Source: an uncultured Oscillospiraceae bacterium
GTDB lineage: Bacteria; Bacillota; Clostridia; Oscillospirales; Oscillospiraceae
Direction: 5' to 3'
Length of the DNA stretch: 40,259 nt
Assembly (NCBI GenBank): GCA_947632155.1
Contig: CANROF010000022.1
Location: 1-40,259, forward strand
A program made the translations under genes and the position numbers. The notes beneath the pieces are model-generated. The model was not told the DNA's origin. It saw nothing but the letters and a program-made list of their open reading frames with translations, and made no database searches. Shown piece by piece: positions 11,609-30,973 of the stretch (position 1 is the first letter of the stretch; the number at the start of each line of letters is the position of its first letter).

Positions 11609-12264
11609 TGGGCCTTTGGGAGAATGTAAAAAGGCTCCTCTTCCCGCCCCGGTGCGTCTTCTGCCGGAGGGTCCTGGAGGCCGGTTCTGTCTGCGGGGAG
11701 TGCGCGGCCTCCCTCCCCCGGTGCGGGGAGGTGAAGTCCGGCGGGGAGTTTTTCTCAAAGTGCGCCGCCCCCCTATATTACACCGGCGACGTGCGGAGCG
11801 CCCTTTTGCGCTACAAATTCCACGGCAGGACCTCCTGCGCGCCGGCCTTCGCCGCGCTGATGGCCCAGTGCGTGCGGGAGCACATGGACGGGATGTACGA
11901 CCTTGCGGCCTGGGTGCCCGTCAGCGCCAAAAGGCTCCGGGCCCGGGGCTACGACCAGTCAAGGCTCCTGGCGGAGCGGACGGCGGAGGAATTGGGCGTC
12001 CCGGCGGAGGCTCTTTTGCGCAAGACCCGCCACACGAAGGCAAACTCGGGCCTCAGGGGCCGGGAGGCCCGGGCCGCCAACATCCTGGGGGCCTACGAGG
12101 TCCCGGAGCCGGAAAAATGCCGGGGCCGCCGGGTGCTGCTCATCGACGACATCTACACCACCGGCGCCACCATGTCGGAGTGCTCCCGGATGCTTTTGAT
12201 GGCCGGGGCCGAGGATGTGGTATGCGTAACAGCGGCCGCCGCGAGGCTGGCTCGAAAGCCCTGA
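11608..12264 (+). CDS. comF: ComF-family phosphoribosyltransferase-like competence protein
   Basis: ComF-family proteins combine a zinc finger with a type I phosphoribosyltransferase fold and are needed for DNA uptake in naturally competent bacteria; the molecular role is not settled. The 218-residue protein has the finger C16-x2-C19 ... C29-x2-C32, the conserved RGYDQSRLLAE, and the PRPP-binding loop LLIDDIYTTGATMSEC (177-192). GGGGAGG at 11594-11600 precedes ATG 11608, which overlaps the recD2 TGA by one base. The stop codon lies within the first hairpin of a structured repeat (12252-12430), so the last residues (about LARKP) and the TGA are shared with that element. The C terminus may therefore have been set by insertion of the repeat. 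Confidence 0.92.
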   Translation: MGLWENVKRLLFPPRCVFCRRVLEAGSVCGECAASLPRCGEVKSGGEFFSKCAAPLYYTGDVRSALLRYKFHGRTSCAPAFAALMAQCVREHMDGMYDLAAWVPVSAKRLRARGYDQSRLLAERTAEELGVPAEALLRKTRHTKANSGLRGREARAANILGAYEVPEPEKCRGRRVLLIDDIYTTGATMSECSRMLLMAGAEDVVCVTAAAARLARKP

Positions 12265-12430
12265 AGGGCTTTCGATGCCAAGGGGACGCGTGCGGACAAA
12301 AATTCTGAATTTTGCGAAATTCAGAATTTTTGTCCTGCTGTCACGCTGCGCGCGCCGCCGCAGGCGGCAACTTGCGTGACAAAAGGGATTTTTCGCGAGG
12401 CGAAGCCCCGCGAAAAATATTGGATTTGAG
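12252..12430 (+). repeat. Four-hairpin structured element, copy A
   Basis: About 179 bases that match 14192-14373 in design. Hairpin 1: 10-bp stem, 12252-12261 with 12266-12275, loop TGAA. Hairpin 2: 19-bp perfect stem, 12294-12312 with 12317-12335, loop TGCG. Hairpin 3: outer stem GTCACGC/GCGTGAC (12340-12346 with 12374-12380) and inner GCCGCC/GGCGGC (12354-12359 with 12363-12368). Hairpin 4: 12388-12397 with 12409-12418, extended by GGC/GCC around a GAA loop with one A/C mismatch. Linkers shared with copy B include AAGGGGA, CGTGCGG, CCTGCTGTC and CAAAAGGGATTTTT, and both end TATTGRATTTGAG. It lies between comF, whose stop codon it contains, and the mreB promoter. Function unknown: a structured RNA or a mobile palindromic repeat. 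Confidence 0.85.
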
Positions 12431-12450
12431 AGCTTAGCGGGCGCAGATAA

Positions 12451-12481
12451 TTGGAAAAAATAACCGCTTTTCGGGTATACT
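12451..12481 (+). promoter_or_regulatory. Possible promoter of the mreB-like gene
   Basis: A good -10, TATACT (12476-12481), lies 30 bases before the ATG. The only -35-like sequence is TTGGAA (12451-12456) with a long 19-base spacer, so the -35 assignment is weak. It sits immediately downstream of structured element copy A. Confidence 0.45.
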
Positions 12482-12511
12482 TATAGAGAAAACGTATTTG
12501 GAGGGATATGT

Positions 12512-13537
12512 ATGATTTTCGGACGGGACATTGGCATCGACCTGGGCACCGCCACGGTGGCGGTGTCGGTCCGCGGCAAGGGAGTGATCTCCCGGGAGCC
12601 GTCGGTGGTGGCCATGGACAAGAATACGGGGAGGCTGTTGAAGATCGGCGCCGCCGCCGAGCGTATGCTGGGGCGCACGCCGGGGAACATCGTGGCCATC
12701 CACCCCCTCCAGGGCGGGGTCATCTCCGATTTTGACATGACGGAGCGGATGATACGGGAGCTTCTGCGGAAGGTCACGTCCTTCAGCCTCCTGAAGCCCC
12801 GGGTGGTGATCTCCGTCCCCTCCGGCATCACGGAGGTGGAGGAGCGGGCGGTCATCGACGCCGGGATACGCGCCGGGGCCAGAAAGGTGTACCTGGTGGA
12901 ATCCCCCGTGGCGGCGGCGCTGGGCGCGGGGGTGGACATCTCCAAGGCCGAGGGCAACATGGTGGTTGACGTGGGCGCCGGCACCACGGACATAGCCGTC
13001 ATCTCCCTGTCCGGCGTCGTGCAGTCGGTGTCCATCAAGACCGCCGGGGACGCCTTTGACGAGGCGATCATCAAATATATCCGGAAAAAGCACAACCTCC
13101 TGATCGGAAAATCCACCGCGGAGGACCTGAAAAAGTCCGTCGGCTGCGTCTTCCCCAAGCCCGACGAGATGAGTGTGGAGGTGAAGGGCCGCTGCCTCAT
13201 GACGGGCCTCCCCCGCATGGTGTCCATCAGCTCCCCGGAGATGATCGAGGCCTTCGACGAGGTGTCGGAGGAGATCGTGGAGGCCATCCACAACGTCCTG
13301 GAGAACACCCCGCCGGAGCTGGTGGCGGACATCTCCGAAAACGGCATCGTGGTCACCGGCGGCGGGGCCCTCATCTGGGGCTTCGACCGGCTCATCGAGA
13401 GCTCCACCAGCATCCAGACGCGCATCGCCGACGACTGCGACATGTGCGTGGTCTACGGGCTGGGGAAGTCCCTGGACCTCATCGGGCAGATGCAGGAGGG
13501 GCCCCTGAACCTCTCCCGCCGCAGGCAGCTCCGATGA
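12512..13537 (+). CDS. mreB: MreB/Mbl-family bacterial actin homologue
   Basis: MreB-type proteins form membrane-associated filaments that guide peptidoglycan synthesis in rod-shaped cells. The 341-residue protein has the normal length and actin-fold motifs: phosphate 1 IGIDLGTATVAV (7-18, D10), REPSVVAMD, then VSVPSGITEVEERAVIDA, the phosphate 2 region VVDVGAGTTDIAVIS, and the adenosine motif VVTGGGALIWGFD. GGAGGG precedes ATG 12512. It stands apart from mreC and mreD, so it may be an Mbl or MreBH paralogue rather than the main MreB; the sequence alone does not settle this. The TGA overlaps the ATG of the next gene by four bases. The pair is bracketed by the two structured repeat copies. Confidence 0.92.
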   Translation: MIFGRDIGIDLGTATVAVSVRGKGVISREPSVVAMDKNTGRLLKIGAAAERMLGRTPGNIVAIHPLQGGVISDFDMTERMIRELLRKVTSFSLLKPRVVISVPSGITEVEERAVIDAGIRAGARKVYLVESPVAAALGAGVDISKAEGNMVVDVGAGTTDIAVISLSGVVQSVSIKTAGDAFDEAIIKYIRKKHNLLIGKSTAEDLKKSVGCVFPKPDEMSVEVKGRCLMTGLPRMVSISSPEMIEAFDEVSEEIVEAIHNVLENTPPELVADISENGIVVTGGGALIWGFDRLIESSTSIQTRIADDCDMCVVYGLGKSLDLIGQMQEGPLNLSRRRQLR

Positions 13538-14163
13538 CGGCGCTGATTTGGGACCTGGACGGGACGCTGCTGGACTCCTACGGCATCATCGTGGACAGCG
13601 TCCTGGCCGTGGCGGCGGAGCGGGGCGTCCGCCTCGACCGGGCGGGGACGCACAGGGAGCTCATCGCCGGCTCCGTCAAGGACTTTCTGGCCTCCCGCTT
13701 TCCTGGCGCGCCGGAGCTGTGGGACCGCTACCGGGCCGTCAGCGCCGCCCGGGACGGCGAGATAACGCTTATGCCCGGGGCCGCCGGGACGCTGAGGGCC
13801 CTCAAGGAGGCGGGCGTCAGGAGCTTCGTCTACACACACAAGGGCGCCGCGGCGCCGGAGGTCCTCCGGCGGCTGGGGGTGCTGGAGTATTTCGACTGTG
13901 TGCTCACCGCCGAGGCCGGCCTTCCCCGAAAGCCCGCCCCGGATGGCATCGAGTGGCTGGTCCGGCGTTACGGACTGGACAAAAGCCGGACCTTTTACAT
14001 CGGCGACCGCCCCATCGACGCCAAGTGCGCCGAGAACGCCGGGGTGGGGTGCATCCTCTACAAGCCCGCCGGCAGCCCCGCCGAGCCAACCGGAACGGAG
14101 CTCATCACCGTCCCCGACCTCCGGAACCTGCCAGGGGAGATGGAAAGCCTGATAAGCAATTAA
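13534..14163 (+). CDS. HAD-superfamily hydrolase, phosphoglycolate/pyrophosphatase (Gph/PpaX)-like
   Basis: A 209-residue HAD phosphatase of subfamily IA. Motif I is WDLDGTLLDS with nucleophile D7 and acid D9. A helical cap follows (about 15-80). Motif II is the threonine in SFVYTHKG, motif III the lysine in RKPAPDGIEWLV, and motif IV YIGDRPIDAKCAENAG. Known relatives hydrolyse phosphoglycolate, pyrophosphate or other small phosphates; the substrate here cannot be told. ATG 13534 overlaps the mreB stop by four bases (ATGA), so it is translationally coupled to mreB. A terminator hairpin starts right after its TAA. A link between the HAD enzyme and cell-shape control is not evident from the sequence. 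Confidence 0.88.
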   Translation: MTALIWDLDGTLLDSYGIIVDSVLAVAAERGVRLDRAGTHRELIAGSVKDFLASRFPGAPELWDRYRAVSAARDGEITLMPGAAGTLRALKEAGVRSFVYTHKGAAAPEVLRRLGVLEYFDCVLTAEAGLPRKPAPDGIEWLVRRYGLDKSRTFYIGDRPIDAKCAENAGVGCILYKPAGSPAEPTGTELITVPDLRNLPGEMESLISN

Positions 14164-14164
14164 A

Positions 14165-14186
14165 AAACGCCCCTGTGGGGGCGTTT
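14165..14186 (+). terminator. Terminator-like hairpin after the HAD gene
   Basis: A 9-bp stem AAACGCCCC/GGGGCGTTT with a TGTG loop begins two bases after the stop. Only three T residues follow, so efficiency is uncertain. A near copy with a longer T tract lies at 14390-14415. Confidence 0.6.
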
Positions 14187-14191
14187 CAGCC

Positions 14192-14373
14192 TGTCGGAAA
14201 AGCCCTGACGGGCTTTTCCGACAAGGGGAACGTGCGGGAAATTTACGCTGAATTTTGCGAAATTCAGCGTAAACTTCCCTGCTGTCGCCCTGCGCGCCGC
14301 CGTAGGCGGCACTTGGGCGACAAAAGGGATTTTTTCCAAGGCACATGTCCTTGGAAAAAATATTGAATTTGAG
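14192..14373 (+). repeat. Four-hairpin structured element, copy B
   Basis: Same design and orientation as 12252-12430. Hairpin 1: 14-bp perfect stem, 14192-14205 with 14210-14223, loop TGAC. Hairpin 2: 20-bp stem with one A/C mismatch, 14236-14255 with 14260-14279, loop TGCG, identical to copy A. Hairpin 3: outer GTCGCCC/GGGCGAC (14284-14290 with 14315-14321), inner GCCGCC/GGCGGC. Hairpin 4: 13-bp perfect stem, 14329-14341 with 14349-14361, loop CACATGT. Outer stems of hairpins 1, 3 and 4 differ from copy A yet still pair. The copy lies inside 18-bp imperfect inverted repeats (14178-14195 with 14381-14398, 16 of 18 matching), a possible sign of mobility. Confidence 0.85.
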
Positions 14374-14389
14374 TTTTTTTGACAACCTG

Positions 14390-14415
14390 AAACGCCCCTG
14401 TGGGGGCGCTTTTTT
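14390..14415 (+). terminator. Second terminator-like hairpin, near copy of 14165-14186
   Basis: The stem CGCCCC/GGGGCG with loop TGTG (14393-14408) is followed by six T residues (14410-14415). It repeats the hairpin directly after the HAD gene on the other side of structured element copy B, as if the element had been inserted into, or had duplicated, a terminator. Confidence 0.55.
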
Positions 14416-14429
14416 CGTGAAAAGACCAA

Positions 14430-14850
14430 TAATTCCTCATCGGCCCCTACATGTGCGTTTCCAATTATACACAAACCCCACCAAAACCGCCGTAGGGGTC
14501 GCCGTCCCCGGCGACCCGGCCCTTCGATATACTCTCATTTCCGACGAACGCACAAACCATAATCTCGCTGTAGGGGCCGATGACCACATCGGCCCGTGTT
14601 GCGATATGCGCCATGCTGCCGCACAACGTGAAACCCTCGTCTCTGTTGTAGGGGTCGCCGTCCACAGCAACCCCTACGGCGTAGTTGAGGGGTGGGCGTT
14701 TTACGGAAAGTGTTCAAATATCGGGAGAATGGGCCGATGTGGTCATCGGCCCCTACGGCGATTCGATAGGTTTTCGCGTTGATTTTGGGCCGTTTTAAAA
14801 CGGGGGACGGGTCGCCGAGACGGCGGCCCCTACAGCGTTGTGTGAAAGCG
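14430..14850. repeat. Cluster of TGTAGGGG palindromic intergenic repeats
   Basis: Five or six units or half-units lie in both orientations, at about 14440, 14491-14523, 14569-14600, 14645-14680, 14730-14756 and 14806-14832. A unit is a G-rich head (TGTAGGGG or its complement) plus a hairpin whose arms vary but pair: GGGTCGCCG/CGGCGACCC in one, GGGCCGATG/CATCGGCCC in another. The same two arm types recur at 34990-35090. Spacers share CCGRCRAACG. An open frame through the cluster is only translated repeat, so the region is treated as non-coding. Confidence 0.75.
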
Positions 14851-30385: not shown

Positions 30386-30408
30386 CTTTCTGCGAGGAGG
30401 TGGCTGCT

Positions 30409-30684
30409 ATGCCTATGATTCGGCCTATATCTGATTTGAGAAACAACGCGAATGAGATATCCGACTTCTGCCATCAGACCCGTGAGCCGGTGTTCATCAC
30501 ACGGAACGGCTCCGGGGATATGGTGGTGCTCAGCACTGAGGAGTTTGAGCGCCGGTCCGCGCTCCTTGAGCTGTACGGCAAGCTCGCCGTGGCCGAGCAG
30601 GAGATAGCGGACGGCGCCAAGGGGGAAGATTTTCAGACGGTGGCCCGTCAGCTTCGGGAGCGTGTCCATGGAACGGGAATATAA
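30409..30684 (+). CDS. Phd/YefM-family antitoxin
   Basis: A 91-residue antitoxin. The N-terminal DNA-binding fold is MPMIRPISDLRNNANEISDF, followed by EPVFITRNGSGDMVVLSTEE, the typical Phd/YefM pattern. The C-terminal half is charged and probably wraps the toxin. ATG 30409 is preferred because GAGGAGG at 30394-30400 is eight bases upstream; a GTG at 30400 would overlap that site. It overlaps the toxin gene by 17 bases. Such antitoxins usually repress their own promoter together with the toxin. Confidence 0.9.
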   Translation: MPMIRPISDLRNNANEISDFCHQTREPVFITRNGSGDMVVLSTEEFERRSALLELYGKLAVAEQEIADGAKGEDFQTVARQLRERVHGTGI

Positions 30685-30973
30685 GGTGGTCATATATCCC
30701 GCCGCCAAGCAGGATTTACTCAGTATCATCGACTACCTGAACACCCTATCCCCGCAGGCCGCGCTGAGATATTACGACCTGCTCACGGAAGAAATCGCGA
30801 GCCTCGCCACGATGCCGGAGCGCTGTCCGCGCGCCCGCGATCTGGCCCTCTCCGCCCATGGGTATCGGGTGCTTGTGGTGGAGAAGTATCTGGTCTTCTA
30901 TAAGGTAGTGGACAACACCGTGCAGATTCATCGGATTCTTTACGGAAAACGAAATTATAAGGCACTGTTATAA
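30668..30973 (+). CDS. RelE/ParE-family toxin
   Basis: A 101-residue toxin with the RelE/ParE pattern: YKVVIYPAAKQDLLSIIDYL at the start, a central ALRYYDLLTEEIASLATMPE, and the beta-strand end YRVLVVEKYLVFYKVVDN followed by RILYGKRNY. ATG 30668 follows GGGAG (30656-30660); a GTG at 30662 is too close to it. Whether it cleaves mRNA on the ribosome (RelE-like) or poisons gyrase (ParE-like) cannot be told. The coupled overlap with the Phd/YefM antitoxin and a terminator directly after it show a complete two-gene module. Confidence 0.9.
   Translation: MEREYKVVIYPAAKQDLLSIIDYLNTLSPQAALRYYDLLTEEIASLATMPERCPRARDLALSAHGYRVLVVEKYLVFYKVVDNTVQIHRILYGKRNYKALL

What the first reader, a model, noticed from the sequence alone, without database searches (positions are those of the whole stretch)
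12252..14373. Two ~180-bp elements with four hairpins and compensatory stem changes, bracketing mreB-HAD
Copies at 12252-12430 and 14192-14373 have the same order of four hairpins in the same orientation. The stems differ but still pair: the outer stem of hairpin 3 is GTCACGC/GCGTGAC in A and GTCGCCC/GGGCGAC in B; hairpin 4 is ATTTTTCGCG/CGCGAAAAAT in A and ATTTTTTCCAAGG/CCTTGGAAAAAAT in B; hairpin 2 has 19-20 bp arms that differ in mid-stem. The TGCG loop, the inner GCCGCC/GGCGGC and the linkers (CCTGCTGTC, CAAAAGGGATTTTT, TATTGRATTTGAG) are kept. Selection on structure is the simplest explanation. It could be an undescribed structured RNA, or a repeat family mobilised through its folded form. 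I cannot rule out that it is already in a database under a name I do not recall.
Basis: partly seen in the sequence, partly recalled or inferred. Interest (0 to 1): 0.82.

Follow-up and report, generated by a model that had tools for sequence, protein, structure and literature searches.

The report
Terminator-hopping mobile elements with conserved hairpins
The two look-alike hairpin blocks belong to a large, apparently undescribed family of small mobile DNA elements in Oscillospiraceae and related gut bacteria that sit at the ends of genes, many inserted into transcription-stop hairpins, and that keep a conserved folded core whose job is still unknown.

Summary
A (12247-12430) and B (14187-14389) are divergent members of a dispersed family: about 32 elements in 428 kb of this genome, covariance-model matches in 32 of 34 genomes of the genus and in 58 of 394 genomes (25 of 168 genera) drawn from the order. 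No Rfam family matches. B is a MITE: its imperfect ~15 bp ends (CAGNNTGTCRAAAA) resemble those of ~1.5 kb IS1182-family insertion sequences in sister species. Like all 7 such IS examined, it lies in a stem-loop that is duplicated on both sides. 38 of 65 two-ended copies have a direct repeat at their tips (0 of 325 shuffled flank pairs); 32 of the 38 form hairpins. A belongs to a subtype without right end or target duplication that abuts stop codons, mostly inside operons; one such site (after ilvC) is shared by 11 of 27 readable genomes of the genus. Pairing is kept with double changes in a genus-wide and an order-wide alignment. What the fold does is unresolved: G-U pairs are not enriched on the sense strand, so DNA-level pairing or hairpin-cassette exchange remain possible. 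Best account: an IS1182-mobilised, terminator-targeting structured MITE with some copies retained at gene ends. No matching autonomous IS was found in this assembly.

The parts
12247..12430 (+). Element A: stop-codon (A) subtype, four hairpins, no right terminal repeat, no target duplication seen
   Evidence: left tip CTGGCTCGAAAG; no family match at this place in 29 other loci
12248..12280 (+). A hairpin 1; its loop TGA (12262-12264) is the in-frame stop of comF
12294..12335 (+). A hairpin 2, TGCG loop
   Evidence: I6
12339..12381 (+). A hairpin 3 (TGTCACGC/GCGTGACA outer stem)
   Evidence: family covariation
12388..12418 (+). A hairpin 4
   Evidence: I14
14165..14183 (+). Left copy of duplicated terminator hairpin (AAACGCCCCTGTGGGGGCG), parted from the long U-tract
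   Evidence: D10; row L001
14187..14389 (+). Element B: IS1182-type MITE, CAGCCTGTCGGAAAA ... TTTTTTTGACAACCTG
14192..14223 (+). B hairpin 1; its 5' arm is part of the left terminal repeat
14236..14279 (+). B hairpin 2, TGCG loop
   Evidence: I7
14283..14322 (+). B hairpin 3 (TGTCGCCC/GGGCGACA outer stem)
14329..14361 (+). B hairpin 4, the hairpin best kept in other genera (apex CRCATGT)
   Evidence: (I16)
14375..14389 (+). Right terminal repeat of B
14390..14408 (+). Right copy of duplicated terminator hairpin, followed by the long U-tract (GCTTTTTT)

Best explanation
Both blocks belong to one family of small non-autonomous mobile elements with a conserved multi-hairpin core. B-type copies are MITEs. 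A transposase of the IS1182 family recognises their ends (CAGNNTGTCRAAAA), recognises an intrinsic-terminator stem-loop as target, and joins the ends at the feet of the stem so that the whole stem-loop is duplicated (the structures and a cognate IS are shown; the act of transposition is inferred). In the window the left hairpin copy is parted from the U-tract and the right copy keeps it, so the element should be transcribed as a 3'UTR with termination after it (inferred). A-type copies have lost or never had the outer ends; they abut the stop codon of the upstream gene, mostly inside operons, and at least one is held at the same site by many species. The core is not derived from the IS examined and is shared across genera, so it is kept for its own sake: most likely because, transcribed in the sense direction behind a gene, its fold makes the insertion tolerable (protected or insulated 3' end) and favours retention. 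That last step is a guess; a role of the hairpins in single-stranded or cruciform DNA is the main alternative.
For: Cognate IS: L145-L149 carry CAG-TGTCAAAAA ends on a 1496-1511 bp element with one open frame of 477-499 codons. The L146 protein scores 380.7 bits to NF033551 IS1182 (cut-off 270), the sister IS in L142 436.5. All 7 IS examined (L142, L145-L149, L152) lie between exact direct copies of a 22-31 bp palindrome at their ends. MITE target: of 65 two-ended copies in the loci held, 38 have a direct repeat at the tips (score >=13) against 0 of 325 shuffled flank pairs; 32 of 38 form a stem >=6 bp. Copies 96-97% identical to B (L004, L006, L008) have other target repeats, implying recent movement. 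At the HAD terminator where B sits, G012 carries the start of the autonomous IS (the locus ends inside it) and G019 an uninterrupted terminator. MITE ends can track IS ends: L068 ends TTTGTCTACAGCCTG like the sister IS. A-type: in 13 of 20 copies found by an upstream-blind pattern an open frame of >=80 codons stops 0-2 nt before the element (one of them, L212, only a 99-codon frame); a copy after the ilvC stop in 11 of 27 genomes. Fold. Called upstream gene co-oriented in 28 of 34; A 17:3, B 35:8.
Against: No autonomous IS with matching ends was found in the own assembly: 9 IS1182 pieces, 6 of them within about 50 nt of a contig end, none with a CAG-TGTC end of its own where I looked (L185, L199). 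27 of 65 two-ended copies show no clear target repeat. Published IS1182-family cases (IS1272) delete the stem-loop instead of duplicating it. G-U is not enriched over A-C on the sense strand. Of the 38 repeats, a T-run only on the right was seen in 11, an A-run only on the left in 5, both in 11, neither in 11, so orientation to the terminator is only weakly biased. For copies in other genera two orientation scripts gave no sense bias (27 sense, 29 antisense, 4 none; 20 sense, 39 antisense, 9 ambiguous); I distrust them because they call plain sense genes antisense, but they do not support the reading. Hairpin 3 is missing or shortened in some long-held orthologous copies.
Confidence: 0.72

Rival explanations
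1. The stems are kept for DNA reasons: hairpins or cruciforms in single-stranded DNA are recognised by the transposase or replication machinery, and there is no RNA function.
For: G-U 35 vs A-C 76 of 4713 pair cells (by pair types per column 19 vs 25); order-wide hairpin 5 has 486 Watson-Crick, 4 G-U, 2 A-C and 7 other pairs; an IS1182 relative is reported to target stem-loops.
Against: The 7 IS examined lack the core, so their transposase does not need it. Conserved unpaired motifs and an apex conserved across genera suggest a specific partner. The outer pairs of hairpin 4 show 36 G-U and 1 A-C, though 27 of the G-U are at one position. In the own genome copies lie mostly sense to the upstream gene. 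Copies without terminal repeats are held at one site in many species.
Confidence: 0.25
2. The compensatory look is produced by exchange of whole hairpin cassettes between copies (gene conversion) or by palindrome-correcting template switching, not by selection pair by pair.
For: Hairpin 3 occurs in a few discrete stem types (TCGCCC, TCACGC, TTTTGC), also among orthologous ilvC copies; linkers that could serve as homology are conserved.
Against: Single pairs inside hairpins 2 and 5 also change on both sides with several pair types; H4-H5 pairing is kept across genera.
Confidence: 0.3
3. A-type copies are a separate element moved by another enzyme that inserts 3' of stop-like trinucleotides (IS200/IS605-like, no TSD), not relics of the MITE.
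For: Constant left tip CTGGC next to TAA/TAG/TGA, no TSD seen, variable right end; two of the three copies not next to a gene stop (L207, L210) also follow TAG or TAA.
Against: Three copies (L209, L215, L218) are read into by the upstream frame without an in-frame stop at the junction; L085 is intermediate, with a CTGGC left tip and an IS1182-like right end. No Y1 transposase was looked for.
Confidence: 0.2

Closest known systems
IS1272 / TnSha1 (IS1182 family; PMC5678879 and PMC4923244, passages seen)
   Same: IS1182-family transposase; targets stem-loops, terminators included, without sequence specificity
   Different: There the stem-loop is deleted and there is no target duplication; here it is duplicated (drawn in PMC5678879 as an alternative pathway). 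The element here is non-autonomous and carries a core not found in the IS examined.
Prokaryotic MITEs with structured transcripts (review PMC10969869, passages seen; e.g. Coxiella QMITE2)
   Same: Short, no transposase gene, terminal inverted repeats, direct repeats, strongly folded
   Different: Core conserved over many genera with covarying stems and fixed unpaired motifs; target is usually a terminator hairpin; end-less copies at stop codons
Streptococcus BOX / RUP / SPRITE repeats (search listing and passages)
   Same: Small intergenic repeats; SPRITE is described as terminator-like
   Different: No sequence relation was tested here; no IS1182 link known to me (recalled)
REP/BIME sequences with RAYT transposases (recalled; PMC2817692 seen in a listing only)
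   Same: More than 100 copies, palindromic, extragenic
   Different: Here four or more hairpins in fixed order, IS1182-type ends and hairpin TSDs; RAYT not searched

Membership tests
MITE (B subtype) | Terminal inverted repeats shared with an autonomous element | tested here: met
   CAGNNTGTCRAAAA ends (imperfect) in B and in IS L145-L149
MITE (B subtype) | Target site duplication | tested here: met
   38 of 65 copies vs 0 of 325 shuffled pairs; window B has a 19-bp repeat
MITE (B subtype) | Short and without transposase gene | tested here: met
   203 bp
MITE (B subtype) | Mobilised in trans by the autonomous element | not testable with these tools
   and no matching IS found in the own assembly
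MITE (A subtype) | Terminal inverted repeats and TSD | tested here: not met
   24 of 25 A copies lack the right repeat; no TSD seen by eye in the copies compared
IS1182 family (the partner IS) | Transposase over the curated NF033551 cut-off | tested here: met
   380.7 and 436.5 bits, cut-off 270; 8 of 34 genomes of the genus over the cut-off
IS1634 family (considered first for its variable TSD) | Transposase over NF033559 cut-off of 100 | tested here: not met
   33.6 and 32 bits
Any Rfam 15 family | Match at gathering score | tested here: not met
   window: 0 matches; window part and 16 of 17 order-wide loci at loose E-values give only matches under the gathering scores
Structured RNA with sense-strand function | Covariation | tested here: met
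   no tree-aware test
Structured RNA with sense-strand function | G-U wobble favoured over A-C | tested here: not met
   genus alignment 35 vs 76 of 4713 cells; hairpin 5 4 vs 2; outer hairpin 4 36 vs 1, mostly one position
REP/RAYT or IS200/IS605 derivative | Linked Y1 tyrosine transposase | not tested
   no search with a Y1 model was made

The most novel reading that the evidence does not exclude
An order-wide selfish nucleic-acid module: a folded core (up to six hairpins, conserved apex CRCAUGU and tail AACUCUGCGAGGC) that is not part of the insertion sequences examined, rides on the ends of different IS1182-type transposons into terminators so that it is appended to host mRNAs, and is repeatedly domesticated as an element right behind stop codons.
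Probability: 0.3. Interest if true: 0.85.

Novelty: new variant of a known kind. Interest (0 to 1): 0.64.

Why it matters
A family that makes up perhaps 1.5% of this genome (extrapolated) and matches in 25 of 168 sampled genera of the order is in no RNA library searched here. It shows, in 32 MITE copies and 7 IS, an outcome of IS1182 transposition (duplication of the whole target stem-loop) that PMC5678879 draws as a possibility, while the IS1272 cases reported there delete the target. If the core acts in RNA, many operons in common gut bacteria carry the same 3' structure, testable in cultured Flavonifractor and Pseudoflavonifractor.

Tried and rejected
IS1634 as mobiliser (suggested by variable TSD length): rejected, the transposases score far under its cut-off and over that of IS1182. 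Known RNA family: none at gathering score. Group II intron-like reading of the conserved GTGCG: noticed, not tested. Autonomous copy in the own genome: only IS1182 pieces, 6 of 9 at contig ends; the CAG-TGTC hits near the piece in L185 belong to a MITE copy. Gene orientation around order-wide copies: one search gave 27 sense, 29 antisense, 4 without a gene; one search gave 20 sense, 39 antisense, 9 ambiguous. I discarded both because the scripts scored shadow ORFs as highly as genes (L281 and L348 were called antisense although the sense gene and its stop are plain). The own-genome counts come from scripts of the same kind trained on this genome; they agree with the stop-codon reading but share the weakness. 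Pair count: the hairpin-4 bracket was out of register; redone. Sister genome G046: 1 copy in 358 kb of its 20 largest contigs looked like near-absence, but the covariance model finds 56 matches in the whole assembly, so I draw nothing from it. L281 was first counted as a further species with an ilvC copy; its 1200 nt around the site are identical to G002, so it is not counted. Plasmid search with one order-wide copy: no match. Literature: the searches list no paper that by title or abstract describes this family or IS1182 MITEs at terminators; most subscription journals are not held. R-scape was not available.
Full report
OBSERVATION. The two blocks are present as described. Each has four hairpins in the same order and orientation; the stems differ and still pair; the linkers are shared. 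B extends further than stated: it runs from CAG at 14187 to CTG at 14389, with imperfect inverted ends, and is flanked by two copies of AAACGCCCCTGTGGGGGCG (14165-14183, 14390-14408), the terminator hairpin behind the HAD gene. A (12247-12430) starts inside the 3' end of comF and supplies its stop codon in the loop of hairpin 1. Pfam supports the neighbours: MreB/Mbl, HAD hydrolase, phosphoribosyltransferase with zinc ribbon (the name comF is recalled).

FAMILY AND COPY NUMBER. With B as query the own genome gives 195 first-look candidates and with A 175; the tool scored the best 40 of each and all matched. In 427.7 kb (stretches plus the window) a profile finds 35 hits, 32 elements after joining three split ones, about one per 13 kb, which extrapolates to some 190 per genome. 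The contigs were long ones that searches had named, so the sample is not blind. Of 34 hits with a called upstream gene, 28 lie in its sense direction (split elements counted twice). A second script on the own genome gives A 17 co: 3 anti and B 35 co: 8 anti, with 2 ambiguous and 1 short.

RELATIVES. By DNA similarity 17 of 24 other genomes of the genus have it and 0 of 15 from other genera. A model of the hairpin 4-5 part (R2) in a class-wide draw matches 7 of 391 genomes: 2 of the own genus, 2 others of the order and 3 weakly outside it. Rfam has no match at gathering score for the window or for 16 of the 17 order-wide loci. Many copies in other genera are longer: behind hairpin 4 they carry a fifth hairpin, a tail like AACTCTGCGAGGCTT and then an IS1182-like end and a second terminator copy. 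The window's B has no hairpin 5 or tail; a few copies in the same genome keep them, such as one before ilvC (L379) and one before an ATP synthase gene (L120; gene names recalled from the translations).

MOBILITY OF B. Five sister-species loci (L145-L149) hold 1496-1511 bp elements whose two ends are CAG-TGTCAAAAA, close to the ends of B (left CAGCCTGTCGGAAAA; right read inward CAGGTTGTCAAAAAA), around one long open frame. A sister IS with ends CAGTCTGTCGACAAA / CAGACTGTAGACAAA is in L142 and L152. Two transposases tested belong to the IS1182 family. All seven IS lie between exact direct copies of a palindrome of 22-31 bp at or within 2 nt of their ends, and none contains the core. MITE copies behave alike: of 65 two-ended copies in the loci held (mostly best matches to B or to the model; 18 partial hits, 16 B-like copies without a recognised right end and 1 further copy were left out), 38 have a direct repeat at their tips (score >=13) against 0 of 325 shuffled flank pairs; 32 of the 38 are hairpins; exceptions such as the repeat CTGAACGGAGGTGA (L024) show that the target need not be one. 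The remaining 27 of 65 show none. In G012 the start of the autonomous IS occupies the same HAD terminator that B occupies in the window (the locus ends inside the IS), and in G019 that terminator is uninterrupted. In G046, nine of nine compared G000 sites lack the element: eight show a hairpin behind the gene and one the next gene (read by eye; one search finds no family match there). Its terminators differ in sequence, so these are not exact empty sites.

SUBTYPE A. Twenty copies were found by a pattern that sees only hairpin 1. In 13 of 20 an upstream open frame of at least 80 codons stops 0-2 nt before the element (in L212 a frame of only 99 codons), in one 6 nt before; in three the frame reads on into the element; the remaining three are not next to a gene stop. 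24 of 25 A copies lack the right terminal repeat and no target duplication was seen. Around mreB, 28 of 29 other loci have no family match and L099 has a remnant of another copy upstream of mreB; in L094 the gene upstream is not comF. After the ilvC stop an A-type copy is present in G001, G002, G006, G010, G011, G012, G019, G044, G047, G048 and G013 (11 of 27 genomes readable there) and absent from G000, G046, G005, G020, G022, G015, G017, G045, G023, G003, G008, G021, G040, G041, G042 and G043. In G044 a B element has inserted into hairpin 1 of that A copy and duplicated it. So A copies can be old and inherited, or the site can be hit again; B copies are young.

STRUCTURE. On 27 copies (26 of the 27 picked plus window B), 97.1% of cells pair, 29 of 50 pairs have changes on both sides, and the covariation score is 0.415 against 0.125 shuffled and at most 0.141 slid. 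On 24 of 25 order-wide copies picked: 99.1%, 10 of 19 pairs, 0.414 against 0.107 and at most 0.105; these loci were found by a pattern that fixes much of hairpin 4, so variation there is understated. Both structures were predicted from the same alignments. Ten distinct orthologous ilvC copies keep hairpins 1, 2 and 4 with different stems; hairpin 3 is shortened in two and absent in one. Against a simple sense-RNA reading, G-U pairs (35) do not exceed A-C mismatches (76) among 4713 cells (27 of the A-C are at one pair); functional RNAs are expected to show the opposite (recalled). The A-C mismatch in hairpin 4 (48 of 95 copies A-C, 46 A-U in the genus; 47 and 30 of 77 order-wide) would be a G-U pair on the other strand. 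Pointing the other way, the outer pairs of hairpin 4 order-wide show 36 G-U and 1 A-C, 27 of the G-U at one position. The strand question is open.

PRIOR ART. IS1272 of the IS1182 family inserts at stem-loops, terminators included, and deletes them without target duplication (passages of PMC5678879, and PMC4923244). The first draws whole stem-loop duplication as an alternative pathway. A MITE review does not contain the word IS1182 (PMC10969869, term search and passages). My searches list nothing on this family.

VERDICT. B is a MITE of a terminator-targeting IS1182 group (high confidence; transposition itself inferred). A is a stop-codon-abutting subtype of the same structured family (high confidence for kinship, mechanism open). 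The conserved core is not explained by the transposon and its function is the open question.

Noticed in passing
window 14430-14840: A second kind of dispersed motif: CGTAGGGGCCGATG / CATCGGCCCCTAC in direct and inverted copies downstream of B (I3, I10, D3, D20); similar CCCCTAC-ended hairpins stand at the ilvC site of some other species.
   Followed up: no
L406 (G044), after the ilvC stop: A B-type MITE is inserted in the hairpin-1 palindrome of an A-type copy and has duplicated GGCCGCAAAGCGGCCT: one family member using another as target.
   Followed up: partly
L379 (G000:C31) and L120:18400-18720 (G000:C87): Long-form copies with hairpin 5 and the AACTCTGCGAGGC tail sit before ilvC and before an ATP synthase gene in the own genome.
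   Followed up: partly
G000 contigs C1, C35, C59, C41, C67: IS1182 pieces at contig ends suggest a second, collapsed multi-copy IS1182, perhaps with ends like GGGGCTGTGAAAA (the end is a guess from one contig).
   Followed up: no
window 30400-30973: Phd/YefM antitoxin and ParE toxin pair.
   Followed up: partly
behind orthologous genes, G000 vs G046: Terminator hairpins behind the orthologous genes compared differ in sequence between these two close species.
   Followed up: no
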